Made by a program: the position numbers and the translations under genes. This document shows, piece by piece, positions 7,796 to 35,580 of a DNA stretch of 38,001 nt (position 1 is its first letter; each line of letters starts with the position of its first letter). The stretch comes from Oligoflexia bacterium (GTDB taxonomy: Bacteria > Bdellovibrionota > Bacteriovoracia > Bacteriovoracales > Bacteriovoracaceae): positions 1 through 38,001 of the forward strand of contig JADGAM010000021.1 of assembly GCA_015232015.1 (NCBI GenBank). The letters run 5' to 3'. Below the pieces are notes generated by a model that was not told where the DNA came from, did not search any database, and saw only the letters and a list, made by a program, of their open reading frames with translations.

Positions 7796-7849
7796 GTTTT
7801 TTTGTTTTTTTGTTTTTTTTATTTTATTGAATAATTAGTTAGTTATTAA

Positions 7850-10631: not shown

Positions 10632-11002
10632 CCGCTTATCAAAACAGTTCTAGGTGTATAAATTCCTAAAGAAAAAAACATATACAAAAAATCTTTCCAA
10701 GAAGTTTTTTCATAAATCTCTAATTTAGATATTTCAGTAAACCCTTCTATTTTACCAAGTCTATCGAGAAAGATTGTATGTTTTTTTGGAATAAGGCCGA
10801 AAAGATAAAAATCAACATCGCTATTAATATTAAAATTTTTATTATGTCCATTTTGCGGAGTAAAAAACACTGGAATATCTCCTGTATTTTTGTATGTTAT
10901 TCTGCTACAAGACACACTGATAAAAATTAATACTAATAATATATTTATATTTAAAAAAAATACAATTGCCTTCACATTAGTTGATGTAGTAGTTATTTCC
11001 AT
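10613..11002 (-). CDS. small lipoprotein with C-terminal GIYTPRT motif
   Basis: 129 residues; signal peptide with lipobox SVSC (Cys32). The mature part starts SRITYKNTGDIPVFFTP and ends with WKDFLYMFFSLGIYTPRTV followed by LISGWG, the same kind of ending as the gene it overlaps downstream, so the two may be divergent paralogues. DFYLFGLIPKKHTIFLD in the middle suggests a beta-sandwich. ATG 11002 has no clear ribosome-binding site and lies close behind a possible promoter, so a leaderless or nearly leaderless message is possible. No function is recognised; Bor-type outer-membrane lipoproteins are the closest idea. Confidence 0.65.
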   Translation of the reverse strand: MEITTTSTNVKAIVFFLNINILLVLIFISVSCSRITYKNTGDIPVFFTPQNGHNKNFNINSDVDFYLFGLIPKKHTIFLDRLGKIEGFTEISKLEIYEKTSWKDFLYMFFSLGIYTPRTVLISGWGIKN

Positions 11003-11016
11003 GCATATTATGATAA

Positions 11017-11044
11017 ATTATATTTATCTATTATCAAAGAGCAA
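11017..11044 (-). promoter_or_regulatory. candidate sigma-70 promoter for the small-lipoprotein pair
   Basis: On the minus strand TTGCTC (-35, 11039-11044), a 16-base spacer and a consensus TATAAT (-10, 11017-11022). The start of transcription would be around 11010, only some eight bases before the ATG. Confidence 0.35.
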
Positions 11045-11061
11045 AATAAAGGTTCGCACTA

Positions 11062-11877
11062 ATGATACCAATTATACCTATGATACCATTAAATCGTATA
11101 ATATCTTTTTCAACAATTATCATATATCTTTTATCTCTTTTTATTTTTGTATCTTGTGGCGGGATAAGCATGAAACGAGTTGAAAAAAATAACCCTGGTG
11201 ATTATTATTTACGTTCTGGCATTCAAGAATACTATCTTCCAGGTTTACCTGATTGGGCCAATTTTTCTAGTGCTGGTCAATGTAGACGAAAACATTCCAC
11301 TTATTATTTTGATCTTAAAAAAATATCTCAAAGTTTTAACTTCGATTATAAGCAAAGTGTTCAATTTCAACTTTCATTCAACAAATATTTGGCCGACTAC
11401 CACACTAAGTTCTCAATGAAAAAACTAAATATTAAAGATGAAGAGATCGTTTTTTATACTACTAAAGATCATATTACCTATGGGAATCTTCCTTTCAAGA
11501 TACCTTCTTACAAAAGAGTTAACTTAATTTGGATTGATGAGACAATAAATAATTCAACAAAATTAAAGTCTCTTACAAAGCTAATGAATAGTGATGAAAT
11601 TGGATCCGGGCATCCAGTTTTTATTTCATTATGTTTATTTAACGATGAAGTTGATTCATTTATAAGTGGAAAAGAATTTAAAGACACCGACATTAGAATT
11701 ATTTCCCATGAACTTTTTTCTATCTATAATGAAAAATTTGAAATGCTTAACCATTTTTATTTAAATTTTGACCTACTTTTTAACAAACAAGAGCAACAAT
11801 TGTTTCTATATCTTCCAAGTTCCTCTAAAAAACCGCCGTTAGAATTCAAAGGAACCTTTAAAATACATTATTACTGA
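11062..11877 (+). CDS. exported lipoprotein, function unknown
   Basis: 271 residues, divergent from the lipoprotein pair. The signal region is long (MIPIIPMIPLNRIISF, then a hydrophobic core) and ends in lipobox FVSC, Cys32, followed by GG. The mature protein has no family I recognise: it reads as a mixed alpha/beta periplasmic domain, with YYLPGLPDWANFSSAG near the start, YLADYHTKFSMKKL and a C-terminus ending LEFKGTFKIHYY, suggesting a final beta-strand. AAAGG nine bases before ATG 11062 supports the start. It is convergent with the hydrolase gene that follows, 127 bases away. Confidence 0.65.
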   Translation: MIPIIPMIPLNRIISFSTIIIYLLSLFIFVSCGGISMKRVEKNNPGDYYLRSGIQEYYLPGLPDWANFSSAGQCRRKHSTYYFDLKKISQSFNFDYKQSVQFQLSFNKYLADYHTKFSMKKLNIKDEEIVFYTTKDHITYGNLPFKIPSYKRVNLIWIDETINNSTKLKSLTKLMNSDEIGSGHPVFISLCLFNDEVDSFISGKEFKDTDIRIISHELFSIYNEKFEMLNHFYLNFDLLFNKQEQQLFLYLPSSSKKPPLEFKGTFKIHYY

Positions 11878-11950
11878 TTAATAATGGAAAAAAATTAACA
11901 TTAATTTGTATTATCTAGAGTACTTGCTATAGTCTTTTAAAAAATGATTT

Positions 11951-11977
11951 AGGTACAGGAGCGGGCGCGGAATCTGA
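11951..11977. other. GC-rich patch between convergent genes
   Basis: AGGTACAGGAGCGGGCGCGG and the bases after it stand out from flanking DNA that is mostly A and T. The patch lies between the lipoprotein stop (11877) and the hydrolase stop (12005). It has no start codon in good context and no strong hairpin; it may be a gene remnant or inserted sequence. Confidence 0.35.
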
Positions 11978-12004
11978 CAAACCTCAAGTTGTTTATCACA
12001 AGTA

Positions 12005-22441: not shown

Positions 22442-23227
22442 TTAATTTTCTAATCTTTTTAATACTTCATAAACTAATTGATTAACCATCTCTTCAGTTA
22501 GTTCAGTTGAATCATTTAATTCATTTGCTGAAGATTTTTTTCTTTGCTTAGACTCAAGTAATGCATTTCTTATTCCTTTCAAACGTTCGATCTCTTGAGG
22601 AGGAAGAGGAGTCACTGATGATGAAGCTAAAGAAAGTTTCATTGATTCACTAATAATCTTTGCTGTATGCTCTAGCGATTCCAACTTTAAATATGCATCC
22701 ATCAAACTATCACCAACAGTAAGTGACCCATGTCTTGTTAAAATAATTACATCGTTGTCAATAATTGATTTTTCAATGGATTTTGGAACTGCTTCGGTGG
22801 TTGGAGTTGCGTACTCTGTAATTTTAATATTTCCTAGAGTAAAAATAGTTTCTGGTAAAATACAATCACTAAGCCTAATATTTGCAACTGAAAAGGCGGT
22901 AGTAATTGGAGGATGCGCATGAACTACTGCTTTTATATCTGAACGAAGTTCATAAACCTTAAGATGCATTTTAATTTCACTTGAAGGTTTAGAATTGAGA
23001 CTAGTTCCACCAGAAATTTTTTCTCCATTTTTATTTATTATCACCAATGCTTCTGGAGTTAACATGCCTTTGCTAACTCCACTTGGTGTAGTAACAATTG
23101 TTCCATCATCTAATAAAACACTTACGTTTCCATCATTGGCCGCTATATATCCATTTTTATACATAAGTTTGGCCACATCAACTATTTGTTTCTTTAATTC
23201 TTCTATAGTCATAATTGTCTTATTCAT
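22442..23227 (-). CDS. class II aldolase with C-terminal encapsulation peptide (BMC cargo 2)
   Basis: 261 residues, FucA/RhaD/AraD class II fold. Metal and catalytic residues are present: GNVS (33-36), TPSGVSKG, acid Glu84 (SSEIKMHL), His103 and His105 (HAHPP) and His187 (LEHTAK). It should cleave a sugar-1-phosphate such as fuculose-1-phosphate to dihydroxyacetone phosphate plus lactaldehyde; ribulose-1-phosphate (glycolaldehyde) is an alternative. After a Ser/Lys/Asn linker the last 20 residues, TEEMVNQLVYEVLKRLEN, form an amphipathic helix of the kind that targets enzymes to microcompartments. It is the last gene of the operon, 14 bases behind its paralogue. The start lies in a 14-base direct repeat that makes two candidate ATGs (23227 and 23212); neither has a strong ribosome-binding site. 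Confidence 0.88.
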   Translation of the reverse strand: MNKTIMTIEELKKQIVDVAKLMYKNGYIAANDGNVSVLLDDGTIVTTPSGVSKGMLTPEALVIINKNGEKISGGTSLNSKPSSEIKMHLKVYELRSDIKAVVHAHPPITTAFSVANIRLSDCILPETIFTLGNIKITEYATPTTEAVPKSIEKSIIDNDVIILTRHGSLTVGDSLMDAYLKLESLEHTAKIISESMKLSLASSSVTPLPPQEIERLKGIRNALLESKQRKKSSANELNDSTELTEEMVNQLVYEVLKRLEN

Positions 23228-23241
23228 AATTGTCTTAAATT

Positions 23242-24051
23242 TTATTTATTTAACATTTTTTTTATCTCTTGAGAGATAATCGTTTTTAATACATCAGCAG
23301 ATGGTAGTGATTGTGATGATGATGGAGATTGATATTGATATTGATATTGAGATTGAGCTTGAGATGAATTCATCTTAATTTTTGGTCCAAGACCTAGTTC
23401 TGCACGTTTTATAAGCAAAGATTTAATCTCGTTATCTTGCAGAGTTGTAATCTTTTTATTATCTTGTCTTGAAGACATCTCTAAATAATAATTTATCTGT
23501 GCCATATGCTCTAAAAGTTCAAGACGAAGATATGCTTGCTCAAGACTATCACCAATTGCAAGCACACCATTTCCAGACATCATAAAAACATCCGCTTCGT
23601 TTAGAGCAGTATCAACTCCTCTTAATTGCTCTTCACTACCAGGAAGTGACATAGCAACCACTGGAATATAATTGCCGATAGAAATAATTGCTTCTGCTAA
23701 GTGTGGAGTAATCGCGTTTCCCAGTAGCCCACAAGTGGTCGCAAAAGGAGGATGCGCATGAATAACTGCTTTTGCTTCTGGCCTTACCTCATATGCTTTT
23801 AAATGCAATTTTACCTCTGAAAAAGCTTTGCCATTTCCTGGTCCTGCAATTTTTTTTCCTTCTTTATCCAGAGTGATTATCCAATCATCTCTCATAAGTC
23901 CTTTACTAATTGCAGTTGGAGTGGCCAAGAAATTATCATTAAAGCGAACAGTAATGTTACCATCATGGTTCGCAACAAATCCTTTAGCATCCAGCTTATG
24001 AGAGAAATAGGTAATCTCTTTTGCTATTTGATGAAATGAAAGATCATTCAT
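23242..24051 (-). CDS. class II aldolase with C-terminal encapsulation peptide (BMC cargo 1)
   Basis: 269 residues, paralogue of the next gene. Class II signature: GNIT (31-34), TPTAISKG, Glu79 (FSEVKLHLKAYE), His98/His100 (HAHPP) and His182 (LLEHMAQ), so the zinc site and catalytic acid are intact. Between the two paralogues the middle third differs (here LAEAIISIGNYIPVVAM), suggesting a different substrate or a division of labour. Residues 228-250 are a Gln/Ser/Tyr linker written by a six-base microsatellite, and the end SADVLKTIISQEIKKMLNK is an amphipathic helix typical of encapsulation peptides. The aldehyde product would be used by the aldehyde dehydrogenase in the same shell. It could act as an epimerase-like member instead, but the compartment context favours aldol cleavage. 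Confidence 0.88.
   Translation of the reverse strand: MNDLSFHQIAKEITYFSHKLDAKGFVANHDGNITVRFNDNFLATPTAISKGLMRDDWIITLDKEGKKIAGPGNGKAFSEVKLHLKAYEVRPEAKAVIHAHPPFATTCGLLGNAITPHLAEAIISIGNYIPVVAMSLPGSEEQLRGVDTALNEADVFMMSGNGVLAIGDSLEQAYLRLELLEHMAQINYYLEMSSRQDNKKITTLQDNEIKSLLIKRAELGLGPKIKMNSSQAQSQYQYQYQSPSSSQSLPSADVLKTIISQEIKKMLNK
23327..23363 (-). repeat. six-base microsatellite in the aldolase targeting linker
   Basis: ATTGAT/ATTGAG units encode alternating Gln-Tyr and Gln-Ser residues just before the encapsulation helix of the aldolase. Confidence 0.8.
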
Positions 24052-24091
24052 AATTTTTGTTCTTGATTTTTATTTTTATTTTTATCTTAAT

Positions 24092-24111
24092 GTTTAAATT
24101 TAAATTTAAAC
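24092..24111. other. 20-bp perfect palindrome after the BMC-T gene
   Basis: GTTTAAATTTAAATTTAAAC reads the same on both strands and lies four bases past the BMC-T stop codon. As RNA it would be a weak A-U stem between cistrons, without a U-tract; it may tune expression of the aldolases rather than end transcription. Confidence 0.4.
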
Positions 24112-24114
24112 GAT

Positions 24115-24771
24115 TTAATCTAATTGAGATCCCATTTTTGATTTTTGAACTTCATTTAATTTTTTTAAAATATTGAGAGCGGCCTCTGAAGCTGAATCAA
24201 TTTCCGATTCACTTCCACTTAAAATTAATCTTCCTGAAGCACCAAATGGAATTATGTCTATTAATTTTATGTTAGCTGCTTTTAAGGCCTCATTACATGC
24301 AATTGTTAAGTAAGCTGCGGGAGTAGTCTCTAAAATAAAAATAGACTCTCCGGCCAATACCATATTACCTCTGGCCATTCCAGTAAACATGATCGCATGA
24401 TCTTGTTGTACTCCACGAATAATTTTATTAGTAAGAATTTTTACTTCTGCTCTATCATTTTCACTTAATTTTGTTGCTCTTAAAACTGCACGGCCGGCCT
24501 CTCTAACTTCGCCTTGATTTGGGTGATGAACTTGCATCATTCCAAATTGCCTTTCAGTGACAACCGAGCTTAGACGAACAGAGGTGGCCTTTAATGCAAG
24601 ATCAATCATAGAGTGAATTTCCATAGCAGGAGCAATCTCAATCATCAAAGCAGCATCATATTCAGCAGGATCGTAAACACGATTATCTTTAGCAGTATAT
24701 TGCGCTAATTGGGGTTGCATACTATCTATGAATATAAGAGTACGAAGTTCAAAATTTGTAGGTATGCTCAT
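24115..24771 (-). CDS. BMC-T (tandem-domain) shell protein, permuted/double-stacking type
   Basis: 218 residues with two fused BMC domains forming a trimeric pseudohexamer of the shell facet. Residues 9-25 (LRTLIFIDSMQPQLAQY) with the following Asp/Tyr-rich turn, and the first-domain start MIEIAPAMEIHSMIDLALKA, are features I recall from Haliangium-type BMC-T proteins that stack as dimers of trimers. The second domain runs FILETTPAAYLTIACNEALK to IIPFGASGRLILSGSE. Such proteins are thought to have gated central pores that pass larger metabolites such as cofactors or sugar phosphates. AAGGAG precedes ATG 24771. It lies between deoC and the aldolases. The stacking type is inference from memory. 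Confidence 0.88.
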   Translation of the reverse strand: MSIPTNFELRTLIFIDSMQPQLAQYTAKDNRVYDPAEYDAALMIEIAPAMEIHSMIDLALKATSVRLSSVVTERQFGMMQVHHPNQGEVREAGRAVLRATKLSENDRAEVKILTNKIIRGVQQDHAIMFTGMARGNMVLAGESIFILETTPAAYLTIACNEALKAANIKLIDIIPFGASGRLILSGSESEIDSASEAALNILKKLNEVQKSKMGSQLD

Positions 24772-24835
24772 AATATTTTATTTCTCCTTAATTTTTAATT
24801 TTAATTTTTAATTTTTAATTTTAATTTTAATTTTT

Positions 24836-25648
24836 TTAATAAGACGAATTGCTTTTTTTACCAGTTACAATTGCTACACTAGAAGATGCTCCTACTCGAT
24901 TAGCTCCAGCTTTAATCATTGCTAAAGCATCTTCACGAGAACGAACACCACCAGAAGCTTTAACACCTAATGAAGAACCAACAATTTCTCTCATCAGTGC
25001 TATATCTTCAACAGTTGCTCCACCCTTTCCAAAACCTGTTGAAGTTTTAACAAATGCCGCTCCTGCGGTTTTTGATAAAACACAAACAATAACTATCTCA
25101 TCATGAGTAAGTCCACCTGATTCTAAAATAACTTTTACCGGATAAGGGTGAGATGCCTGGGTAACGGCAACAATGTCATCAAAAACTGTTTTATAATCTT
25201 TGGATTTCAGTGCTCCAATATTTACGACCATATCAATTTCTCTAGCTCCGGCCATAATGGCCTCTCGATATTCAAATGCTTTTGAAGATGCAGTGGCCGC
25301 TCCCAAAGGAAATCCTACTACTGCAATTGGTTTGACCGATGAACCGGCCAATTGTTCTGCAACTAATGGGATGTTTGATGAATTCACACAAACTGTCGCA
25401 AAGTTATACTGTTTGGCCTCTTCACATACTTTTATTAATTCAGCTCTAGTTGCATCTGGTTTTAATAATGTGTGATCAATCATCCTTGCTAATTCATGAT
25501 CATATTCTCCTGAAAAATTGTTATTACCACCACTGCCCCCACTGCCACTGCTACCTTTGCCATTGCTATTACCAGCATTATCAGAAGATGAATTTTTACT
25601 ATTAAATTTCAAGGTACACAAACCATAAGTTCTTATACTTGAATTCAT
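24836..25648 (-). CDS. deoC: deoxyribose-phosphate aldolase with N-terminal extension (BMC cargo)
   Basis: 270 residues. DeoC splits 2-deoxyribose-5-phosphate into acetaldehyde and glyceraldehyde-3-phosphate. Class I aldolase residues are intact: Asp139 (REIDMVVN), Schiff-base Lys201 (FVKTSTGF) and Lys230 (VKASGGVR), within IDHTLLKPDAT to GASSSVAIV. The catalytic domain begins only at about residue 50. Before it come MNSSIRTYGLCTLKF and a Gly/Ser/Asn linker (20-45), the layout of a targeting segment plus spacer, although the segment does not look like the usual amphipathic helix. Acetaldehyde made inside the shell would feed the aldehyde dehydrogenase of the same operon. AAGGGAG precedes ATG 25648. 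The usual ESxLLTDEE-type segment reads ESGGLTHDE here, a modest departure. Confidence 0.95.
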   Translation of the reverse strand: MNSSIRTYGLCTLKFNSKNSSSDNAGNSNGKGSSGSGGSGGNNNFSGEYDHELARMIDHTLLKPDATRAELIKVCEEAKQYNFATVCVNSSNIPLVAEQLAGSSVKPIAVVGFPLGAATASSKAFEYREAIMAGAREIDMVVNIGALKSKDYKTVFDDIVAVTQASHPYPVKVILESGGLTHDEIVIVCVLSKTAGAAFVKTSTGFGKGGATVEDIALMREIVGSSLGVKASGGVRSREDALAMIKAGANRVGASSSVAIVTGKKSNSSY

Positions 25649-25713
25649 TTTTATATCTCCCTTCTATATATATTATCTATATTTTATATATTATTAATTA
25701 TTATTAATATTTT

Positions 25714-25989
25714 TTATTTTTTTGTAACCTTATCTACAATTCCTATTATCACAGAGTGAAGTGGATCATCTTTTGTTCCTAACAACTCTTGAGCGCTCTT
25801 TCCATCTTGTGAATAGATTACAATATCGCCTGGTCCCGCATCGGTTTCATCACATGGAATTGACAAAATCGCCACGCCCTCGTCATTACCATATTGATCT
25901 ATTGGCTGTACAATTAACACCCTATGGTTGTTAAAACATGGATGCTTTATTGTTGAAACGACATTTCCTTTAACTCTTCCTAATTTCAC
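25714..25989 (-). CDS. BMC-P pentameric vertex protein (EutN/CcmL family), third copy
   Basis: 91 residues, one EutN/CcmL domain: MKLGRVKGNVVSTIKHP, then VLIVQPIDQYGNDEG, a DAGPGDIVIYSQDGKSAQ loop and VIIGIVDKV. Pentamers of this family cap the twelve corners of the shell. The start is GTG at 25989 with GGAG eleven bases upstream. Unlike the other two it has a Cys in the first loop (KHPCF) and a second in IPCDETD. It lies 41 bases behind the second BMC-P and 65 bases ahead of deoC. Confidence 0.92.
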   Translation of the reverse strand: MKLGRVKGNVVSTIKHPCFNNHRVLIVQPIDQYGNDEGVAILSIPCDETDAGPGDIVIYSQDGKSAQELLGTKDDPLHSVIIGIVDKVTKK

Positions 25990-26030
25990 AATTTTTCTAT
26001 CTCCAAAATACCAAATATTTTCAAATATTC

Positions 26031-26342
26031 TTAATTATTTTCAAATACCTTTTTTCGTAAATCTTCATCGACTTTCTCCCATTCAATATTAACTGTATCA
26101 ACAAAACCAGTTATGGCCGCATCTACAGGGGGAACACTTTTTAAGGCAAATGCCGCCTCTCTTGAAAGTGTATAATAAACAATGTCCCCAGGGCCTGCAC
26201 TGACAACATCAATGGCAGCAATAATATCCCCACTCTCCTTAAGTTTATCATCTAATGGTTGAATTAAAAGTAATTTTTCCCCATGTAATTTGGGATCTTT
26301 TATTGTTGCAACCACCGTACCTACTACTCTTGCAAAACGCAT
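26031..26342 (-). CDS. BMC-P pentameric vertex protein (EutN/CcmL family), second copy
   Basis: 103 residues: MRFARVVGTVVATIKDP, LLLIQPLDDK, VVSAGPGDIVYYTLSREAA and AAITGFVDTV give the complete EutN/CcmL fold, with a charged C-terminal tail (EKVDEDLRKKVFENN) not seen in the other copies. Expected role is a shell vertex. AAGGAG lies nine or so bases before ATG 26342. It sits just after the PduT-like shell gene. Confidence 0.93.
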   Translation of the reverse strand: MRFARVVGTVVATIKDPKLHGEKLLLIQPLDDKLKESGDIIAAIDVVSAGPGDIVYYTLSREAAFALKSVPPVDAAITGFVDTVNIEWEKVDEDLRKKVFENN

Positions 26343-26399
26343 ATTTTTATGAGCTCCTTATCTAAATAATCTAAATAAATAACAAGTCAAAATAATAAA

Positions 26400-26954
26400 T
26401 CAAAAGAGAGTATTTAAAAATTCTTGATGAGGATTTGCAATTATCTCAAATCCCACTAAATTTCCCTCTGATAATAAAAGTTCTTTAGCGGCACCAACCG
26501 CCTCTTCCATATCATTAAGTTCTCCAGTTAAAATAAAATAGGCCTTGCCGCCTAATCCATTTGCCAATCTAATATCAGCTGCCTGTACGGCCGCTTTTTT
26601 TAGTGCTACATCCATTGCTAAAAAAGCATCAGCAACTGAAAAACTTTCTACAATTCCCACGGCATCCCACTTTATATTTTTTGTTGTAGCAGTCAGTGCA
26701 GGGATAATTCCTTCATGCACGTATGGAATATAAATATTTGCAATTAACAAATCTCCTGCTCGCTCTCTTCCACTTTCCATTGCTTCTTTCACCTCTTCAA
26801 CTTCACCCGCTACCATCACAATAAATTTTCCTGGGCAAATTGAATGGGCCTTTATCAACTGCACTTGAGATTTTTTTATCATAACATCTGCAACAACATA
26901 CCCACGTGCTATTGATTTTAATTCTAAAATTCCGACAGCTGGCAAATTAAACAT
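26400..26954 (-). CDS. PduT-like BMC-T shell protein with Fe-S cysteine
   Basis: 184 residues, two BMC domains (about 5-90 and 95-180), no permutation. The pore-loop sequence SICPGKF is the same as in PduT of the Salmonella Pdu shell, where the Cys (Cys38; Cys40 here) binds a [4Fe-4S] cluster at the trimer axis. It should pass electrons through the shell rather than metabolites. The gene follows the PduS-like gene by six bases, and its GAGGAG ribosome-binding site is made from the last codons of that gene, so the pair is translationally coupled, which fits a PduS-PduT complex. The second-domain loop is NGLGGKAYF. Shell identity is certain; cluster presence is inference from the motif. Confidence 0.92.
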   Translation of the reverse strand: MFNLPAVGILELKSIARGYVVADVMIKKSQVQLIKAHSICPGKFIVMVAGEVEEVKEAMESGRERAGDLLIANIYIPYVHEGIIPALTATTKNIKWDAVGIVESFSVADAFLAMDVALKKAAVQAADIRLANGLGGKAYFILTGELNDMEEAVGAAKELLLSEGNLVGFEIIANPHQEFLNTLF

Positions 26955-26960
26955 ACTATG

Positions 26961-28559
26961 CTACTCCTCCACACTACTGCCACTTATACCACTTGTATTA
27001 TTCGTACTACTTGTATTCGAGTTTATAATTGTTATCTCTTTATCACTTATATTTTTCACAAATCCATTTATAGAAGCATGATAAATTGACCCTAATTTAT
27101 TATTATTTCCATTATTCCCATTACCCATTTCAATATCAATATTAGGAGTAATCGCAATGATATCACCTAAAGAAACATTTGTTCCAACTGTTACAATTGG
27201 TTTTGCTGCTTCTCCAATATGTTCTGCTATGTTTATAGTAACACTTCTAACCTCTGAGGGATATATCACCTCATAATGAACATTATGAACATCATGAGTA
27301 TTATGATTATTATGAGCATCATGAAAATTTTGAGTATCGTAATCGGCCAATCTTAATTTGGTGATTAATTTTTTCGTTGGAATTTTTCTAAATTCTAATG
27401 CTTCTAAAGTTTTTATTGGCGAATTTGAGTGAGGATTTTTCATCCCAGCTCGACTTAAGAGCTTTCTATATTCGGCCAAAATCTTTCTAGGAGAAAGCTC
27501 CATTACATCACAAGCAAAGAGTTCACAAACTCCACACTGACTACATAAAAACGCAGAGGTAATTGCATTTAGTGGTGCTGATAAATTATAATCCAGCATT
27601 CGCATAGATTGATGAGGATTTAAGGAATGTCCGAGTAAAGAACGCGGGCAAAGCTCACTACAACGATAACATTGGCAACAACTGGCCTTAGATTTTTTTA
27701 CCATCTGATTAAGATCTATCTCTTGTGCTTTAACTAATAGATGATCTTTTGGCAGTAGTATTATTCCACTCGATCTTTTACCAACATTAATTTTTTCTGT
27801 ATCTACAAGTTTGCCCATCATTGGGCCACCATCAATAATCTTTAATTGAGAGAGCGGCCGTTTTAATTTTACTCTAGATATTAGATCATTTATGGAAATT
27901 CCGATGGGTGCTTTAAAAACTTTTACTCCTTCAACTTCACCTGTAACGGTTACTAATCTACTGGTTACAGAAATTCCTCCACCATCAATTGCTTCAGATA
28001 ATTGGGCCAAGGTCAATACATTGTGAACCATTACTCCCACCGAAAGAGGCAATCCTCCCTCTGGAATTATCCTGGAAGTAGTCTCGTAGACTAATAAAAA
28101 TTCATCTCCTACTGGATAATAACTTTCAAGCAGATGTAATTTAATTTCAAAAATATTTGGATTATAAATTCCTTGAGATGCTCTTTGACTTATTATTTTT
28201 TCAAGTTCAACTACTACATCTTTGTACTCGCCTTTAACTGCAATAATTCCTAATTTGGCCTGACAAATTCTCATTGAATGTTCAAGACCTAAAATTACTT
28301 GCTCAGGAAATTTGCGCATGAGTAATTTATCACTCTCCAAAAGTGGCTCACACTCACTTCCATTTGCAATAACTGTATCGATTTTTTTTGTCAGAGTTTG
28401 CGCCGAAAGAAATTTTTTATATAAGGGAAAGCCACCACCACCGGCCCCAATAATACCAGCATCCATTGATTTTTTTATAAGATCATTTATAAAATTACTA
28501 TTACTACTGTTATTACTGCTGTTACTATTATTACTACTATTAATACTATTATTACTCAT
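26961..28559 (-). CDS. PduS-like flavin/Fe-S oxidoreductase of the microcompartment
   Basis: 532 residues of the PduS/RnfC family, which oxidises NADH with FMN and two [4Fe-4S] clusters. The dinucleotide/flavin segment GIIGAGGGGFPLYKKF (36-50) and ANGSECEPLL come first. The cluster motifs are Cys295/297/300/304 (CQCYRCSELCP) and Cys339/342/345/350 (CSQCGVCELFAC). Known PduS proteins are about 450 residues; the excess is an Asn/Ser-rich 22-residue N-terminal tract and a His/Asn insert (HDAHNNHNTHDVHNVH, 413-428), both from simple-repeat DNA, and an Asn/Ser tail. It would re-oxidise NADH made by the aldehyde dehydrogenase and hand electrons to the PduT-like protein. The start ATG overlaps the dehydrogenase stop (ATGA). 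No other Rnf genes are near, so RnfC of an Rnf complex is unlikely. Confidence 0.92.
   Translation of the reverse strand: MSNNSINSSNNSNSSNNSSNSNFINDLIKKSMDAGIIGAGGGGFPLYKKFLSAQTLTKKIDTVIANGSECEPLLESDKLLMRKFPEQVILGLEHSMRICQAKLGIIAVKGEYKDVVVELEKIISQRASQGIYNPNIFEIKLHLLESYYPVGDEFLLVYETTSRIIPEGGLPLSVGVMVHNVLTLAQLSEAIDGGGISVTSRLVTVTGEVEGVKVFKAPIGISINDLISRVKLKRPLSQLKIIDGGPMMGKLVDTEKINVGKRSSGIILLPKDHLLVKAQEIDLNQMVKKSKASCCQCYRCSELCPRSLLGHSLNPHQSMRMLDYNLSAPLNAITSAFLCSQCGVCELFACDVMELSPRKILAEYRKLLSRAGMKNPHSNSPIKTLEALEFRKIPTKKLITKLRLADYDTQNFHDAHNNHNTHDVHNVHYEVIYPSEVRSVTINIAEHIGEAAKPIVTVGTNVSLGDIIAITPNIDIEMGNGNNGNNNKLGSIYHASINGFVKNISDKEITIINSNTSSTNNTSGISGSSVEE
27270..27330 (-). repeat. ATGAAC/ATTATG-type repeat encoding the His/Asn insert of PduS-like protein
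   Basis: Degenerate six- to nine-base units (ATGAACATTATGAACATC and relatives) encode the His/Asn run between the cluster domain and the C-terminal domain of the PduS-like protein. Confidence 0.7.
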
Positions 28560-30049
28560 ACAATCCTAAAATAGCCATTACTCAAAACGCATCTACGTGA
28601 ACGTACAAAGTGCCTTGCGGTTGTAACTCCCTCTCCTGTTGGAGAAGCAATGGTAAATGATGTTGGCCCTTCTCCTTCAAATGCAAGACCGGCCAATGCT
28701 GGACCATTTTTGACAAATATGGAAGTGTTCATCTTAACTGCCATCTTGTGCATATTTTCTATATTACGAGAATGAATAACTGCTGTATGTCTGCAACCTG
28801 CCTCTAAGTTATAAGCAAGTTCAATTGCTTCATCAATATTATTTACTCGTATAAGAGGAAGAATAGGCATTAACATTTCTGTTTTTGCAAATGGGTGATA
28901 CTTTTCAGTCTCCACAAAAGCTAATCTAACAGCAGTATCAATTTGCAACCCAACTTCTCCTAAAATTAATTGAACATCTTTACCAACAAAGTTTTTATTT
29001 GGATGTCCACTTTCATCAATCAATAAGCGGGTCAATCTATTTCCATGAAATTGAGAAAGCTCATAAGCACCAGCTGACAATAGTGCTTTTTTCAGAGGAT
29101 TAAATGCCTTCTCAGTAACTATTATCTCTTTTTCCAACACACAGATAATATTATTATCCATGCTTGCACTTGCAATAATATCTCTAGCGGCCTTTTCGAT
29201 GTCTGCTGTTTCATCTACCACTACTGGAGGATTTCCTGGTCCTGCCGCTATAACTCTCTTCCCAGATTTCATTGCAACTTTAACTACTGCGGGTCCTCCA
29301 GTTACAACAAGTAATGCTATATCTGGATTAGTCATCAATTTCTGAGCAGAATCTATTGTTGGATTAATAATGGTTGTTAAAAGATTTGCAGGGCCACCCT
29401 CTGAAATAATTGCTCGATTAAGTAAAGATATTGTATACGCAGACGTTTTCTTGGCCGATGGATGCGGATTAAACACAACTGTATTTCCGCCAGCAAGCAT
29501 TCCAATACCATTATTAATTATAGTTTCAGAGGGATTTGTACAAGGAGAGATACTTCCAATTACACCGTAAGGTGCTTGCTCAATTATGGTTAATCCATTA
29601 TCTCCTGTAAAAGCTGTTGGATTTAAATCTTCTATCCCTGGTGTTTTATTAATGGCCAAAAGATTTTTTTTTATTTTATCATCGACTCTTCCAAGTCCTG
29701 TTTCATCTTTCGCCATTTGTGACAGACGAGAGACATCTTCTCTTGCATATTTTCTTATAGCAGAAATTATCTTTGATCTTTGCTCAAGAGATATCTCTTG
29801 ATATTGCGAGAATGCTCGCTTTGAAGCGGCCACCGCCTCCTCAATGCTATTAAAACATCCCGTAGTAGTTGTTGAAGATGGGAAAGAAGAAGAAAAAGAA
29901 GAAGATAGTAAGGATGAAGGTAAGGTTGAAGAAGGAGGTAAGAGTGAAGAAGGAGCTGGTACAGGCGCTTTTTGTTGCGCTTGTTTTGCTCGATACTCTT
30001 CAACTACTCGACTAACAATATTATCAATTTGGGTTTCGTTTATTTTCAT
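28556..30049 (-). CDS. CoA-acylating aldehyde dehydrogenase with N-terminal encapsulation peptide
   Basis: 497 residues, EutE/PduP family: aldehyde + CoA + NAD+ to acyl-CoA + NADH. Catalytic Cys303 lies in NNIICVLEKE, the position of PduP NLPCIAEKE, with the cofactor segments ISPCTNPSETIINNGI and AAGPGNPPVVVDE. The N-terminus ETQIDNIVSRVVEEYRAK (5-22) is an amphipathic helix as in other encapsulated EutE/PduP enzymes, joined by a Pro/Ser-rich linker (28-63) to the catalytic domain starting at FNSIEEAV. It is the core enzyme expected to consume acetaldehyde or lactaldehyde from the aldolases. AAGGG is nine bases before ATG 30049. It overlaps the PduS-like gene by four bases. Substrate choice between C2 and C3 aldehydes cannot be read off. 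Confidence 0.95.
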   Translation of the reverse strand: MKINETQIDNIVSRVVEEYRAKQAQQKAPVPAPSSLLPPSSTLPSSLLSSSFSSSFPSSTTTTGCFNSIEEAVAASKRAFSQYQEISLEQRSKIISAIRKYAREDVSRLSQMAKDETGLGRVDDKIKKNLLAINKTPGIEDLNPTAFTGDNGLTIIEQAPYGVIGSISPCTNPSETIINNGIGMLAGGNTVVFNPHPSAKKTSAYTISLLNRAIISEGGPANLLTTIINPTIDSAQKLMTNPDIALLVVTGGPAVVKVAMKSGKRVIAAGPGNPPVVVDETADIEKAARDIIASASMDNNIICVLEKEIIVTEKAFNPLKKALLSAGAYELSQFHGNRLTRLLIDESGHPNKNFVGKDVQLILGEVGLQIDTAVRLAFVETEKYHPFAKTEMLMPILPLIRVNNIDEAIELAYNLEAGCRHTAVIHSRNIENMHKMAVKMNTSIFVKNGPALAGLAFEGEGPTSFTIASPTGEGVTTARHFVRSRRCVLSNGYFRIV

Positions 30050-30065
30050 TTTTTAAACCCTTCTT

Positions 30066-30368
30066 TCATTCATTAGAGGATGATTTGGAATAACGAGTTT
30101 TTCCTTCAACATCCATGGTATCCACTATCGCTATTATTACTGCATCTACCGGTTTATTTTGAGTAACATCTGTTAATCTGGCCGAGCTTCCTGATGCAAG
30201 CAACACTATCTCATCAATTCCAGCTCCAACAGAATCGATAGCACAAATAACTCCTCCCTTAGATACTCCCTCAACATCTGCAGGTTGTACCAATAAGAGT
30301 TTGAGTCCATCCATTCTACCTTCTTTCTTAGTAGCAACTACAGTACCTACTACTTTTGCAATTTGCAT
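30066..30368 (-). CDS. BMC-P pentameric vertex protein (EutN/CcmL family), first copy
   Basis: 100 residues from ATG 30368 (MQIAKVVGTVVATKKEG), with GGAG nine bases upstream; an in-frame TTG six bases earlier is not needed. LLLVQPADVEG, the loop SVGAGIDEIVLLASGSSARL and VIIAIVDTMDV complete the fold, followed by a short Ser/Lys tail. The family makes shell vertices. It is the second gene of the operon, between BMC-H and the aldehyde dehydrogenase. Confidence 0.93.
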   Translation of the reverse strand: MQIAKVVGTVVATKKEGRMDGLKLLLVQPADVEGVSKGGVICAIDSVGAGIDEIVLLASGSSARLTDVTQNKPVDAVIIAIVDTMDVEGKTRYSKSSSNE

Positions 30369-30446
30369 AAGCAAAATCTCCTATTCTCAATATCCTCGAT
30401 AATTCTCAATAATTTTCGATAATTCTTAATAATTCTTAATTAAGTC

Positions 30447-30755
30447 TTATTTTGTTTTAGTGGTAGCTGTTGTAGTAGCTGCGCGACCCAATGGTAAAAC
30501 ATCTTCAATATTTGTATGTGGACGTGGAATTACATGAACGGAAACTAACTCACCAACTTTTTCAGCGGCCCTTATACCGGCCTCAGTTGCGGCCTTTACT
30601 GCAGCAACATCTCCACGAATGATTGCAGTAGTAAGTCCTCCACCAACTTTCTCATAACCAACAAGTTCAACTTTAGCCGCCTTCAACATAGCATCAGCTG
30701 CTTCTACCATTGCTACAAAACCTCTAGTTTCAATCATACCTAAAGCGTCAGACAT
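30447..30755 (-). CDS. BMC-H hexameric shell protein
   Basis: 102 residues, single Pfam BMC domain: [20 protein letters not shown], pore loop KVGGG (36-40), [20 protein letters not shown] and [14 protein letters not shown], then an Ala/Thr simple tail. This is the bulk facet tile of the shell and the only BMC-H in the window. The Lys/Gly pore matches those that pass small polar or anionic metabolites. It has a strong AAAGGAG site, is first in the operon and lies about 88 bases behind a predicted promoter, which suits the high expression needed for a shell tile. Confidence 0.97.
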
Positions 30756-31009: not shown

Positions 31010-32386
<1,377 letters not shown>

Positions 32387-32427: not shown

Positions 32428-35400
32428 TTAAAAACCTAAAACACCTAAACCTGTTTTTGTATCAATTTTAACAATTACAGGCGAAGATAATTTTATGTGA
32501 CTAATAAATTTTGTTTCTTCTACTACCTCTAAAATATTCTTATTAAAATTACCATTAAGTTTATCCCATCTCAAGAAATCTTCTTGCTGGTAAACTGTAA
32601 AATAAATCACTCCCAGAGAAGTTATATTGTGGAAAAAATGTGTACCTTGAGAGGGATCAACCTTATAATTCTCAATCGATGCTTCAACTATCCCACCAAC
32701 CAGCGAAATATCTTTCCACACTATAGGAATTCCCAATCTACTATCAGAAGAACCCCAACGTCCAGGACCAATTAGTAAATAACGTTGATTCTTTTCTTCA
32801 AATTTTGCATTAATTTCAGAGATCTCTTTTGCAATAGCCACTGTATCTCTAAAAGAAAAATTTTCCTTCTTTACAAAAACAACATCTCTTACATTTTGCA
32901 ATATTCCACGTCCTAAGGCATTGGTAGAGTAAACTACGGCATTACTCACATCTTCCTTCGTTATCACTATATCCATATCTTCAATCCTATTTGCCATCGG
33001 TCGTATTTGAAGCAAAATAAATTCATTTGTATGATTTTTCTCAGTTTTAATATTGATCGCATACTCCAATTCAATATCACAACCTAATCCCTCTTTACCT
33101 ATTTCCAAAATCGTAGAAATGAGTTCAGCAACAGGTAACATGTCATACTTCAAAATATTTGCAAATGTAAGAATTGGAGTTCCACGTTTAGAGGTTGTAT
33201 CACTGATTTGATTGTCTTGAGCTACGTAAACACTCATCAGTGATTCATTAGCACCTTCACTAACAGCATCCACTACCAATCGCTTATGAAGATTAACATC
33301 ATCATCAAGCCAAATCTCTTGATTACATTTGAATTTCTCCTGATTTATAACAGTGTTTTTACATTGAACTGTAAATCTTTTGCTATTTATACTACTTGTA
33401 TTGTTTGTGCTGCAATTACTGTTATTATGATTACTAATATTATAATCTGAGATATTATTATCAATATAATCTGAACTTGTTATACCATTTCGACCTTCAC
33501 TGGGCCTACAACTTCCCATTTTCAGAGCATAAAAATATTGTTGGGCATTTTTTAAAATCGAAGTTACATCATAAAATTGTGGTAATACTTGAGGATATTT
33601 TGGAGAAAAGCGGAGTGATTGTCCTCCATCGACCACAGTCTTTCCCAGGCCTAAAGCAATATGTGCTACTCCCTCTTCTGCTTTCATAAATGAAACTGGA
33701 TAGAAGTTGTGTGATTGAGCGGTTCCTGAAATAGTAGGATAATAATAATCACCAAAGCGCTGTCCACAAAGTTCTTGAATACTAATGGCCATCTGTTCTT
33801 CTTCAGTTCTATGTCCTGTAGTTTTAGCAAAAGTACGTGGTGGTTTATAAAAAACTGAAGCATATATTAATTTTATGGCCCTTAAAAGCTGACGATGACA
33901 TTCCTTAATATCACTATGATCATTAGGCAACATGTATGTTTTATAAATGCCTGCATATGGCTTAAATTGACTATCTTCTAAAAGTCCAGAAGAGCGAACC
34001 GCAAGTGGATAACGAGCATGTTCTAAAAATTCTAACAAATCTTCTTCGAGTGATGTAGGAAGTTTTGCTTCAACAAATCTGGAGGCAATAATCTCATCGC
34101 TACATTCTATTTTAATAAATTCTTCTAAATTATTTTCCTCTAAAAATTGGTCATAAATATCAGTGGTAATTACTAATGTTTTGGGAATAGTAACTTTTAT
34201 ATTGGAAAATTTTTTAAGTCTTTCAGTATTGTTTTCAATACACTTAAGCATAAAGGCAAGCCCTCTGGCCTTACCCCCCATTGAACCATTGCCAATCTTT
34301 AAAAACTCAGACTCAGGATAAAAACTATTGCGATCAAAATTTATTACTATACCCCGACGCTGTAAAATACGAACAGAATGAATACTATCAATTAAAAATT
34401 TTCTTATCTCCTGCACGCTTGAAAAATCTTCATATCTGGGATTTCGAACCTTTTGTGCTAACTCAAATTGTGATCGTGCTAGAAACCAAGTAGAAAAAGA
34501 GTGCCCTAAAACTGCTTGATGCTTAAGTGATTCATCAGGAACTTCGCTTAAAATTCTCTCCATCTCTACTAAATTGGCCGCCCTTGCCACCTCTGTGCCA
34601 CTAGGCATGCGAAAAATATAATCACCAAATCCCAAATTATCTAAGAAAAATTGCCGAATCTCTTGTAAGAGAGTGGGTGAATTTTTATCTAAGAAAAATG
34701 CTTTAATTTTTTTTGCTTTTTCTCGATTTTTTTCCTCTGAGCTAAAAAGAAATGTTGGAAGATATGGTAACTCTTTTTTTATCTTTTTTAATAGGCTGAT
34801 TCCTGCTTCATCATCAATTTCTCCACCTCTATTTTTAGGATACCTAATATCTGAAAAGAGGCCAAGCAAATATGGTTTAAATTTGTTGTATAGAGATAGT
34901 GCCTGTTCATAATTACTGGCCAATAATAATTTTGTTCTGGCCCTCAAATGTAACAATCGATGCTCATCATTTACTCCCTCTTCTAAAATATTTTGAGTCT
35001 GTTCAAAGATTGCTTCATAAATTAAAGGCAGTAGTGAAGAATAGTAGGTTGGAGAATCCTCCACTAAAATTAATACTTGTACATTTGCTTCCTCTGTATC
35101 ATGAACAACATTCATTTTATCTTCTTGCCACTTTAGTATTGCCCACAATATGTTTCTATTTCCATGCCAAACAAATAATTTATCGATACTATTTTCAAAT
35201 TGTGATAATTTTTCTGCATATTGAGTTAAACCTAGAGAACTTTGAACCAACAAAATAACCGCCATATCACGTTTGATTGAAAGCTGTTTTAACTCTGATC
35301 CAAATGATACTGCATCCATCTCCAAATATCTGGGCATAATTACAACAACATCAACTTCATACTTACTTACAATATCAAGGGCCCCTCTTATAGTAGAAAC

Positions 35401-35580
35401 AATAGTAAAACGTGGAGGGTAAGTCATATTCATACCGCGATCACTGGCAAAAACATGTTCCATTAACCCCCCATCTTCTTCCATAATAAAAGCATCGTAG
35501 GGACTTGATACAATTAAAATCTCTTTTACTCTATAGGGCATTAAATTATGATATGTCTTGAAATTTGAATAAGAATGCAT
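32428..35580 (-). CDS. receiver-PEP-synthase-like protein (PPDK N-terminal domain)
   Basis: 1050 residues. Residues 17-150 look like a degenerate receiver with no phospho-acceptor Asp (VVVIMPRYLE). Residues 167-310 are a convincing receiver: acidic pair Glu174/Asp175 (LVEDSP), acceptor Asp244 (LFSDIRYP), Ser280 and Lys299 (FLDKNSP). From about 425 a pyruvate/PEP-binding ATP-grasp-type domain follows (GNGSMGGKARGLAFM, 430-444; YPLAVRSSGLLEDSQFKPY, 524-542), and a family-specific GPGRWGSSDSRLGIP (938 on). I see no phosphohistidine swivel domain with its TxxGGxTSH motif, so it is not a standard PEP synthase. The family is widespread but uncharacterised to my knowledge. Residues 699-735 are an Asn/Ser insert from simple repeats. 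GGAG precedes ATG 35580; pepT is 26 bases upstream. Confidence 0.8.
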   Translation of the reverse strand: MHSYSNFKTYHNLMPYRVKEILIVSSPYDAFIMEEDGGLMEHVFASDRGMNMTYPPRFTIVSTIRGALDIVSKYEVDVVVIMPRYLEMDAVSFGSELKQLSIKRDMAVILLVQSSLGLTQYAEKLSQFENSIDKLFVWHGNRNILWAILKWQEDKMNVVHDTEEANVQVLILVEDSPTYYSSLLPLIYEAIFEQTQNILEEGVNDEHRLLHLRARTKLLLASNYEQALSLYNKFKPYLLGLFSDIRYPKNRGGEIDDEAGISLLKKIKKELPYLPTFLFSSEEKNREKAKKIKAFFLDKNSPTLLQEIRQFFLDNLGFGDYIFRMPSGTEVARAANLVEMERILSEVPDESLKHQAVLGHSFSTWFLARSQFELAQKVRNPRYEDFSSVQEIRKFLIDSIHSVRILQRRGIVINFDRNSFYPESEFLKIGNGSMGGKARGLAFMLKCIENNTERLKKFSNIKVTIPKTLVITTDIYDQFLEENNLEEFIKIECSDEIIASRFVEAKLPTSLEEDLLEFLEHARYPLAVRSSGLLEDSQFKPYAGIYKTYMLPNDHSDIKECHRQLLRAIKLIYASVFYKPPRTFAKTTGHRTEEEQMAISIQELCGQRFGDYYYPTISGTAQSHNFYPVSFMKAEEGVAHIALGLGKTVVDGGQSLRFSPKYPQVLPQFYDVTSILKNAQQYFYALKMGSCRPSEGRNGITSSDYIDNNISDYNISNHNNSNCSTNNTSSINSKRFTVQCKNTVINQEKFKCNQEIWLDDDVNLHKRLVVDAVSEGANESLMSVYVAQDNQISDTTSKRGTPILTFANILKYDMLPVAELISTILEIGKEGLGCDIELEYAINIKTEKNHTNEFILLQIRPMANRIEDMDIVITKEDVSNAVVYSTNALGRGILQNVRDVVFVKKENFSFRDTVAIAKEISEINAKFEEKNQRYLLIGPGRWGSSDSRLGIPIVWKDISLVGGIVEASIENYKVDPSQGTHFFHNITSLGVIYFTVYQQEDFLRWDKLNGNFNKNILEVVEETKFISHIKLSSPVIVKIDTKTGLGVLGF

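What the first reader, a model, noticed from the sequence alone, without database searches (positions are those of the whole stretch)
22442..30755. An aldolase-fed bacterial microcompartment with three aldolases and no other signature enzyme
Eleven consecutive same-strand genes encode one BMC-H, two BMC-T, three BMC-P, an acylating aldehyde dehydrogenase, a PduS-like protein, DeoC and two class II aldolases. DeoC makes acetaldehyde and class II sugar-phosphate aldolases make lactaldehyde or glycolaldehyde, so three aldehyde sources feed one dehydrogenase. BMC classifications describe sugar-phosphate-utilising loci (DeoC) and planctomycete-type loci (class II aldolase) separately; both together with two aldolase paralogues is a combination I do not recall. 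If the host is a predator or necrotroph, DNA- and cell-wall-sugar-derived phosphates would be natural substrates; that part is inference.
Basis: partly seen in the sequence, partly recalled or inferred. Interest (0 to 1): 0.85.

Follow-up and report, generated by a model that had tools for sequence, protein, structure and literature searches.

The report
Deoxyribose-fed bacterial microcompartment with electron wire
A Bdellovibrionota bacterium carries a conserved protein-shelled organelle that probably splits DNA-derived deoxyribose phosphate into an aldehyde and burns it, with an iron-sulfur pore that seems to carry the electrons out; one of its three supposed aldolases has an altered metal site.

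Summary
They are not a one-off: the order BMC-H, BMC-P, AldDh, PduS, BMC-Ts, BMC-P, BMC-P, DeoC, BMC-Tdp, Ald2A holds in 10 of 12 shell-bearing genomes of the class (two are cut by contig ends) and in one marine MAG; an Aminicenantes MAG keeps it up to DeoC.

1. DeoC looks intact and is the likely aldehyde source. In 9 of 12 shell-bearing genomes it is the only DeoC found.
2. Ald2A has Asn for the third metal histidine in all 12 loci with plain DeoC. Only Ald2B looks canonical; within this locus type it occurs in three genomes, where sister loci have triosephosphate isomerase.
3. PduL is absent (0 of 14 genomes); the locus has no alcohol dehydrogenase. PduS and the PduT-like shell protein probably reoxidise NADH. 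The pore cysteine is in 12 of 12 loci with intact PduS, 0 of 3 with degenerate PduS, 0 of 32 without PduS found.

AldDh groups with HO-like loci (my label), not RpiB-DeoC SPU loci. I call it a new variant of a known kind. Catalysis, metals, electron flow and substrate are inferred; Sutter's supplementary catalogue could not be read.

The parts
30447..30755 (-). BMC-H, hexameric shell protein
   Evidence: PF00936, 107.6 bits
30066..30374 (-). BMC-P1, pentameric vertex protein (first of three BMC-P)
   Evidence: PF03319, 97 bits; best PDB match is a vertex chain of the shell structure 5v74, E 1.1e-28; that 5v74 is the Haliangium shell is recalled and fits the chain names HO-5815/HO-5816
28556..30049 (-). 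Acylating aldehyde dehydrogenase with N-terminal encapsulation-peptide-like helix
   Evidence: PRK15398 661 bits, above cut-off; in a clade of 14 rows (100/99) that holds every PduS-bearing locus of the tree except L030, outside the RpiB-DeoC SPU clade
29996..30049 (-). Putative encapsulation peptide of AldDh (residues 1-18)
   Evidence: Similar stretch, by eye, near the N-terminus of all 13 AldDh listed; type II AldDh carry the EP there (PMC8217296). Function inferred
26961..28559 (-). PduS-like NADH:FMN/two-[4Fe-4S] reductase (RnfC_N barrel at the C-terminus, unlike RnfC)
   Evidence: PF01512 and PF13534 above cut-off; C-terminal PF13375 at E 2e-5, 25.0 bits, just under its cut-off of 25.6; glycine loop, Cys54 equivalent and both cysteine clusters kept; PduS domain set in PMC6325248
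26400..26954 (-). BMC-Ts, PduT-like tandem-domain shell protein
   Evidence: PF00936 twice; TIGR02526 152 bits, below its cut-off of 250; PDB matches 3pac and PduT 3n79
26835..26837 (-). Pore cysteine Cys40 (SICPGKF), equivalent of the PduT [4Fe-4S] ligand
   Evidence: Codon TGC; aligns with ICPGKF of 3pac and ISPGKF of 3n79; PduT motif C-P/S/A-G-K/R/S-Y/F in PMC6325248
26031..26342 (-). BMC-P2
   Evidence: PF03319, 78.9 bits
25714..25989 (-). BMC-P3
   Evidence: PF03319, 71.9 bits
24836..25648 (-). DeoC, deoxyribose-5-phosphate aldolase; only DeoC found in the assembly
   Evidence: TIGR00126 264 bits, above cut-off; one match in the genome; FVKTSTGF, VKASGG and EIDM motifs read directly
25607..25633 (-). 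N-terminal tail motif RTYGLCTLK of DeoC, where most sister loci have an EP-like helix
   Evidence: meaning unknown
24115..24771 (-). BMC-Tdp, CcmP-like shell protein with a predicted gated pore
   Evidence: PF00936; NF053796 182 bits, below its cut-off of 340; PDB 7dhq, then HO-5816 (5v74, 2e-51) and CcmP (4ht5)
23242..24051 (-). Ald2A, class II aldolase-family protein with altered metal site (third His to Asn)
   Evidence: PF00596; E79, H98, H100 invariant in the 12-row alignment; Asn in all 12 rows from loci with plain DeoC; model pLDDT 84.3, FucA fold
23569..23571 (-). Asn161 codon (AAT), position of the third metal-binding His of FucA
23254..23298 (-). Putative C-terminal encapsulation peptide of Ald2A (residues 252-266)
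   Evidence: Predicted helix after residues 226-250 with pLDDT under 50; ADVLKTIISQEIKKM
22442..23227 (-). Ald2B, class II aldolase with intact E-H-H-H site; within this locus type only in the window's lineage, at the position of TIM in sister loci
   Evidence: PF00596; metal triad; presence and absence
22445..22498 (-). Putative C-terminal encapsulation peptide of Ald2B (last 18 residues)
   Evidence: TEEMVNQLVYEVLKRLEN read from sequence; function inferred

Best explanation
The locus builds one polyhedral metabolosome. 2-Deoxyribose-5-phosphate from nucleosides enters, perhaps through the CcmP-like gated pore. [quoted passage not shown] The locus has no alcohol dehydrogenase, so NADH is reoxidised by PduS (FMN plus two Fe-S clusters) docked on the PduT-like trimer; its pore [4Fe-4S] cluster passes electrons to the cytosol. 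Triose phosphate goes to glycolysis, helped in sister loci by a TIM encoded next to the locus. In the window's lineage a canonical class II aldolase, Ald2B, has been added as a second aldehyde source of unknown substrate. Ald2A is a conserved, probably encapsulated homologue that is probably not an ordinary aldolase. Shown here: genes, order, conservation, residue patterns, and the co-occurrence of PduS redox residues with the pore cysteine, including their joint loss. Inferred: catalysis, substrate, metal and Fe-S binding, direction of electron flow, CoA handling.
For: Ten-gene core in 10 of 12 carriers of the class (the other two, G042 and G121, are cut by contig ends) and in L007. DeoC: 118 of 129 class genomes have a match; in 9 of 12 shell-bearing genomes the only copy is of the BMC type (8 in the locus; G042's on a separate contig, placed with g15 BMC DeoC by tree). 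PF07831 pyrimidine phosphorylase domain in 123 of 129, including all 12. Seven of 7 sister class loci read past Ald2A have TIM next (four by Pfam; all seven by my own profile; L047's is cut). PduL 0 of 14. Pore Cys in 12 of 12 loci with intact PduS, 0 of 3 with degenerate PduS, 0 of 32 without PduS found. Between two g45 species PduS is 55% identical, the nine other core proteins 82-94%. PduS oxidises NADH, carries FMN and two [4Fe-4S], binds PduT; PduT cluster +99 mV, above the flavin (PMC2982820).
Against: No biochemistry. Two genomes of genus g45 (L046, L047) keep the locus with a degenerate PduS and no pore Cys, so electron export is not essential to every member; both also hold a second, cytosolic-looking DeoC. 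L092 has shell, AldDh and a degenerate PduS but no DeoC, Ald2A, BMC-P2 or BMC-P3 match in its 19.9 kb, and EutC upstream, so the chassis is not tied to DeoC. L008 lacks Tdp, Ald2A and TIM in its 17.9 kb. CoA recycling is unexplained without PduL. The window's DeoC lacks the EP-like helix of most sister loci. In the PduS tree the three degenerate copies form one clade (97/94), so the co-loss may be a single event; the AldDh tree leaves it open. A standard DeoB was above cut-off in 1 of 129 genomes only, so the mutase step is not identified. DeoC and the phosphorylase are near-universal in the class, so they do not by themselves tie the pathway to the shell. The host genome was not searched for alcohol dehydrogenase, Pta or TIM.
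Confidence: 0.6

Rival explanations
1. One reading: a multi-sugar aldolase compartment. DeoC gives acetaldehyde and both class II aldolases cleave fuculose-, rhamnulose- or ribulose-1-phosphates to lactaldehyde or glycolaldehyde for one dehydrogenase.
For: Both proteins belong to PF00596 and have EP-like C-termini; Ald2B has an intact E-H-H-H site; PVM and GRM5 compartments use such aldolases (PMC4207490).
Against: Ald2A lacks the third metal His in all 12 loci with plain DeoC. Neither protein reaches an NCBIfam cut-off; the best Ald2B score is 128 bits against 250. No sugar kinase or sugar isomerase family among the 26 window ORFs scanned, of 39 of at least 80 aa. Within this locus type Ald2B is in only three genomes.
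Confidence: 0.12
2. Two-deoxypentose compartment: DeoC handles 2-deoxyribose-5-phosphate and Ald2B handles 5-deoxyribulose-1-phosphate from 5'-deoxyadenosine, so that both deliver acetaldehyde to the one AldDh.
For: Ald2B matches DrdA (6btd) at E 7.9e-20, better than E. coli FucA at 5.3e-14. DrdA makes acetaldehyde and DHAP (PMC6079011). One acetaldehyde dehydrogenase would serve both. Ald2B stands where sister loci have TIM, the other route to DHAP.
Against: YgbL (6vop, 6voq) matches better still. No DrdK or DrdI gene was recognised among the window ORFs scanned; the rest of the genome could not be searched (cap reached).
Confidence: 0.15
3. HO-type compartment with DeoC parked in the operon. 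The real substrate is that of HO compartments (unknown) and DeoC works in the cytosol.
For: AldDh lies on the HO-like side of the tree; BMC-P1 best matches a 5v74 vertex protein; the window's DeoC lacks the EP-like helix of its relatives; 1 of 20 HO-like loci fetched has DeoC within the stretch read (many are cut).
Against: DeoC has an EP-like N-terminal helix in 9 of the 11 sister rows listed (by eye) and in L097; it keeps its place in every complete locus of the type; BMC-type DeoC is the only DeoC found in 9 of 12 genomes.
Confidence: 0.13

Closest known systems
SPU (sugar phosphate utilising) metabolosomes, Axen 2014 and Sutter 2021
   Same: DeoC plus AldDh; Atribacteria SPU loci also have PduS, and one of them TIM (PMC4207490); DNA-sugar catabolism proposed
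   Different: RpiB, shared by all seven SPU subtypes, is not in this locus: where found it lies on another contig; no PduL; extra class II aldolase-family protein; AldDh and DeoC outside the RpiB-DeoC clades
HO (Haliangium ochraceum) type
   Same: BMC-P triplet, CcmP-like BMC-Tdp; aldolase in the main locus of HO type II; some HO genomes carry DeoC with an EP-like extension elsewhere (PMC8217296)
   Different: PduS and the pore cysteine, DeoC inside the operon, Asn-type Ald2A. None of 20 HO-like loci here has PduS, and none of their BMC-Ts has the Cys ('HO-like' is my label)
SPU-like loci of Latescibacteria
   Same: AldDh, PduS and class II aldolase (PMC4207490)
   Different: They have PduL, RpiB and acetate kinase and a class II aldolase instead of DeoC
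PVM, PVM-like and GRM5 (fucose/rhamnose)
   Same: Class II aldolase; GRM5 also has PduS and PduT (57 of 57, PMC6325248)
   Different: Here DeoC, no glycyl radical enzyme, Ald2A metal site altered
PduS/PduT of PDU and GRM compartments
   Same: Domain order, cysteine clusters, CPGK-F/Y pore motif
   Different: No cobalamin enzyme or glycyl radical enzyme in the locus; the pair would serve NADH reoxidation

Membership tests
SPU | DeoC-type aldolase (PF01791) in the locus | tested here: met
SPU | RpiB (PF02502) in the locus (shared by all seven subtypes) | tested here: not met
   Own RpiB on C376, locus on C133; of 14 genomes with this locus type 13 have RpiB, in none on the contig of the locus (contig lengths for G129, G130, G042 checked)
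SPU | AldDh on the SPU branches of Sutter's tree | tested here: inconclusive
   Not with the RpiB-DeoC rows, but no labelled SPU5 or SPU7 reference was at hand and Sutter places HO AldDh nearest those
HO | BMC-P triplet | tested here: met
   Three PF03319 proteins; Sutter's colour classes not tested
HO | BMC-Tdp of the CcmP or CsoS1D clades | tested here: met
   NF053796 (below its cut-off) and HO-5816 and CcmP matches
HO | AldDh grouping with HO loci | tested here: inconclusive
   Groups with Myxococcota and Bdellovibrionota HO-like rows, branch 90/94, not starred; no named Haliangium AldDh in the tree
HO | No obvious signature enzyme in the locus | tested here: not met
   DeoC in the operon
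PVM / PVM-like | Class II aldolase signature enzyme | tested here: inconclusive
   Ald2B canonical, Ald2A altered; substrate untested
PVM / PVM-like | DeoR-family regulator in or beside the locus (in most such loci) | tested here: not met
   No DeoR-family match among the 26 window ORFs scanned, which include the locus and its neighbours
GRM5 | Glycyl radical enzyme | tested here: not met
   None among the eleven genes
PduS | 51-kDa NADH/FMN domain, dicluster ferredoxin domain, C-terminal RnfC_N barrel | tested here: met
   (RnfC_N just under its cut-off); motifs; domain set. SLBB (PF10531) not reported by the scan
PduT | Pore cysteine in C-P/S/A-G-K/R/S-Y/F | tested here: met
   SICPGKF
PduT | Bound [4Fe-4S] cluster | not testable with these tools
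   Needs purified protein
Class II (FucA-type) aldolase, for Ald2A | Three His metal ligands and catalytic Glu | tested here: not met
   E79, H98, H100 kept, third is N161
Class II (FucA-type) aldolase, for Ald2B | Three His metal ligands and catalytic Glu | tested here: met

The most novel reading that the evidence does not exclude
A class of metabolosome that replaces shell alcohol dehydrogenase (and lacks PduL) by a wired shell: the PduS/PduT pair respires luminal NADH through an Fe-S pore, and the wire's two halves are gained and lost together. Beside it sits a repurposed, metal-site-altered aldolase homologue (Ald2A) that accompanies plain DeoC and has a new, non-aldolase function inside the shell.
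Probability: 0.35. Interest if true: 0.78.

Novelty: new variant of a known kind. Interest (0 to 1): 0.6.

Why it matters
PduS/PduT electron export across a shell was suggested in 2010 (PMC2982820) and the pair's role in B12-independent compartments was still called open in 2019 (PMC6325248). The strict match between PduS redox residues and the pore cysteine, including joint loss within one operon type, makes it testable with natural matched pairs (intact and degenerate loci). The locus also ties a shell organelle to DNA-sugar catabolism in Bdellovibrionota, a phylum that includes predators (recalled), with BMC-type DeoC the only deoxyribose-phosphate aldolase found in 9 of 12 carriers of the class. 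Ald2A gives a conserved, apparently encapsulated class II aldolase homologue with an altered metal site and unknown function.

Tried and rejected
Rejected: (1) 'RnfC' as the name of the redox protein. NCBIfam scores it highest as rnfC (below cut-off), but the RnfC_N barrel is C-terminal, as in PduS. (2) Full SPU membership, because RpiB is not in the locus. (3) PduL elsewhere in the genome. (4) Ald2A as an ordinary fuculose-phosphate aldolase. (5) Two independent co-losses of PduS redox residues and pore Cys as an established fact: the PduS tree joins the three degenerate copies, the AldDh tree does not decide; I claim one or two. (6) Promoter and terminator scan: 40 promoter-like sites against 39.1 in shuffles, 6 terminator-like against 4.7; nothing usable. 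(7) DeoB as a marker of the pathway: above cut-off in 1 of 129 genomes. (8) L092 first looked like a counter-example (PduS present, pore Ser); its PduS proved degenerate.

Led nowhere: literature on Bdellovibrio(nota) or Bacteriovorax compartments (nothing relevant in the titles and abstract starts listed). Supplementary Data 2 of PMC8217296, which would settle whether a MIC, HO or SPU entry already covers this locus, could not be read (supplement look-ups capped at 0).

Rows left out of counts: in the 47-row pore table I used the window plus the 46 of 49 loci with a BMC-Ts match above 90 bits; L029, L104 and L106 have none. L051, L052 and L055 were omitted as second copies of L010, L009 and L006; L054 ends before the gene. 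Several of the 32 loci without PduS are short contigs (for example L018, L022, L024, L031, L083), so absence of PduS is not proven there; near-identical pairs (L019/L021, L025/L026) were counted separately. In the class II table (21 rows) one more row, L023, was assigned to my Ald2A profile; it has His and its locus no DeoC, so I count it among the nine canonical rows. In the DeoC tree cyt_L065 was dropped by the program for too few columns.
Full report
What is there. Eleven minus-strand genes run from 30755 to 22442: BMC-H, BMC-P1, acylating AldDh, PduS-like, BMC-Ts, BMC-P2, BMC-P3, DeoC, BMC-Tdp, Ald2A, Ald2B (families). The four PF00936 domains found in the assembly are all here. The host is a 4.9 Mb, 413-contig assembly, 84.7% complete. 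Its nearest relative with this locus is G059 of the same genus, AldDh 84% identical. By contig position this is the assembly behind L005, titled an Oligoflexia bacterium, a name NCBI places in Bdellovibrionota.

A conserved locus. A scan of genome contigs with AldDh gave 27 loci. Within the window's class, 12 of 129 genomes have this AldDh at E 1e-100 or better, and the same 12, and no others, have a BMC-P match. The order H, P1, AldDh, PduS, Ts, P2, P3, DeoC, Tdp, Ald2A holds in 10 of these 12; the other two, G042 and G121, are cut by contig ends. It also holds in L007, a marine MAG titled only 'bacterium'; L008, an Aminicenantes MAG, keeps it up to DeoC. Within this locus type Ald2B is found only in the window, L005 (G059) and L006 (G060). 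In the seven other class loci whose sequence runs past Ald2A (L009, L046-L050, L053; L047 cut by its contig end) the next gene is triosephosphate isomerase: four shown by Pfam, all seven by a profile built from those four. That profile finds no TIM in the window or in the L005, L006 and L008 stretches; L007's contig ends after Ald2A.

Where it belongs. In an AldDh tree of 50 rows, the PduS-bearing loci except L030 form a clade of 14 (100/99). L092, which has PduS but no DeoC, is in it. The clade sits with Myxococcota and other Bdellovibrionota loci, mostly of the order Tdp, H, P1, AldDh, Ts, P2, P3, which I call HO-like. The RpiB-DeoC loci of Neomarinimicrobiota, Zixiibacteriota and others fall in a different clade (100/98). 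The root is for drawing only and the branch that separates the two halves has 90/94, not starred. The DeoC tree agrees: BMC DeoC of this type form a group at 100/99 (which also takes in L069 and L070, from genomes without BMC), apart from the DeoC of RpiB-DeoC loci, 100/99. RpiB exists in 13 of the 14 genomes with this locus type, in none on the contig of the locus. PduL is in 0 of 14; the control search finds it in E. coli and Thermotoga.

Aldehyde source. DeoC keeps the lysine and aspartate motifs of the family (residue roles recalled). TIGR00126 finds DeoC in 118 of 129 class genomes. In 9 of the 12 carriers the only DeoC found is of the BMC type: 8 lie in the locus, and that of G042 is on another contig and sits with its genus's BMC DeoC in the tree. 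G120 and G122 have a second copy outside the locus; in G121 the locus is cut and only the outside copy was seen. PF07831 (pyrimidine nucleoside phosphorylase) is in 123 of 129, including all 12. A standard DeoB is above cut-off only in G109. PF07831 and DeoC are near-universal in the class, so they show that the pathway is available, not that it goes with the shell. Deoxynucleoside sugar is the best substrate guess.

Ald2A is not an ordinary aldolase. Glu79, His98 and His100 are kept, but the third metal ligand of FucA is Asn161 in the 12 Ald2A sequences of loci with plain DeoC (window, L005-L007, L009, L046-L050, L053, L097). The nine other class II homologues in that table, Ald2B included, have His. 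L097, an HO-like locus of another family without PduS, has the same Asn-type protein and its own DeoC with an EP-like helix, so Asn-type Ald2A travels with plain DeoC in this sample. The model (pLDDT 84.3) has the FucA fold and ends in a low-confidence linker and a helix, the usual look of an encapsulation peptide. Twelve rows are a shallow alignment, and a model cannot say whether metal binds.

The electron outlet. BMC-Ts has SICPGKF at the PduT cysteine (ICPGKF in 3pac, ISPGKF in 3n79). I tabulated 47 BMC-Ts sequences against PduS. Intact PduS (glycine loop, Cys54 equivalent and both tetracysteine motifs): 12 loci, all Cys; eleven are of this locus type and one, L030, of another. Degenerate PduS (glycine loop changed, three of four cysteines of the first cluster and the last of the second gone): L046, L047, L092, with Gln, Gln, Ser. 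No PduS found: 32 loci, none Cys. The degenerate genes are still open frames of normal length, but L046 and L047 PduS are 55% identical while the other nine core proteins are 82-94% identical; in the intact pair L009/L049 PduS is 88%. Parsons and colleagues showed that PduS is an NADH-dependent FMN protein with two [4Fe-4S] clusters, that it co-purifies with PduT, and that its cysteine variants lose cobalamin reductase activity; they suggested electron export (passages of PMC2982820). Ferlez and colleagues give the PduT motif and call the role of the pair in GRM compartments open (passages of PMC6325248). The pattern here supports a functional tie in a compartment with neither a cobalamin nor a glycyl radical enzyme in its locus, where NADH reoxidation is the obvious need. 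It is comparative evidence; the loss may be one event (97/94 in the PduS tree) or two, and the other contrast is between locus types.

Known and new. Axen 2014 describes SPU loci (DeoC, AldDh, RpiB; PduS in Atribacteria, TIM in one of them), suggests that PduS might make an alcohol, and describes SPU-like loci with a class II aldolase and PduS (passages of PMC4207490). Sutter 2021 gives DeoC and RpiB as shared by all SPU subtypes, places HO AldDh nearest SPU5 and SPU7, and notes HO loci with an aldolase in the main locus and DeoC with an EP-like extension elsewhere (passages, outline and part 1 of 3 of Results of PMC8217296). I did not find this gene set described in the listings or in those passages, but the locus tables are in supplements that I could not open, and L009 comes from a 'GWA2' assembly that probably predates the 2021 survey (recalled). 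It may be filed there under a MIC, HO or SPU number. I therefore call it a new variant of a known kind.

Mechanism, with status. Shell (families shown; assembly inferred). Deoxyribose-5-phosphate to G3P and acetaldehyde by DeoC (inferred from family, residues and copy number). Acetaldehyde to acetyl-CoA by AldDh (family). NADH to PduS to pore cluster to cytosol (inferred; residue co-variation shown). G3P to DHAP by TIM in sister loci (gene shown). CoA recycling unknown; passage of large cofactors through gated BMC-Tdp pores is raised for other types in PMC8217296 and is a guess here. Ald2B substrate unknown; 5-deoxyribulose-1-phosphate (DrdA, 6btd, E 7.9e-20; PMC6079011 passages) is attractive because it too yields acetaldehyde, but YgbL (6vop) matches better.

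Noticed in passing
window 25607-25633; L048 and L053 DeoC: DeoC tails of the window, L005 and L006 lack the EP-like helix and begin with RTYGLCTLK; L048 and L053 have both the helix and a similar stretch (TFGLTTIK, QYGLTTIS). A second, unknown linear motif may matter.
   Followed up: partly
L007, L009, L049, L050 DeoC linkers; RpiB-DeoC linkers of L011, L015, L016, L020: Cysteine-rich stretches (such as CSGCGKC, CNNCGQC, CRCGIC) lie between the N-terminal part and the DeoC core, like small metal-binding motifs.
   Followed up: no
L092 (G310) 7338-9000: A related locus with degenerate PduS has EutC (PF05985) and a BMC-domain protein just upstream and no DeoC in 19.9 kb: perhaps an ethanolamine-fed version of the same chassis.
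   Followed up: partly
L097 (G361) 7189-12864: HO-like locus with both DeoC (EP-like tail) and an Asn-type Ald2A but no PduS and a Ser pore: the two traits separate.
   Followed up: partly
L023: A record titled Bifidobacterium breve MAG carries an HO-like BMC locus; the title is probably wrong.
   Followed up: no
BMC-Ts of the loci: Loci with RpiB-DeoC mostly have His at the pore position, HO-like loci mostly Ser: the pore residue tracks the locus type.
   Followed up: partly
window 7850-9823: Protein with a transglutaminase elicitor domain (PF16683, E 2.5e-38), a family that I recall as named for oomycetes, in a bacterium.
   Followed up: no
window 32428-35580: A 1050-aa PPDK_N-domain protein next to glutamate dehydrogenase (31010-32374) just upstream of the locus; of the loci only L005 shares the pair at this place.
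   Followed up: partly
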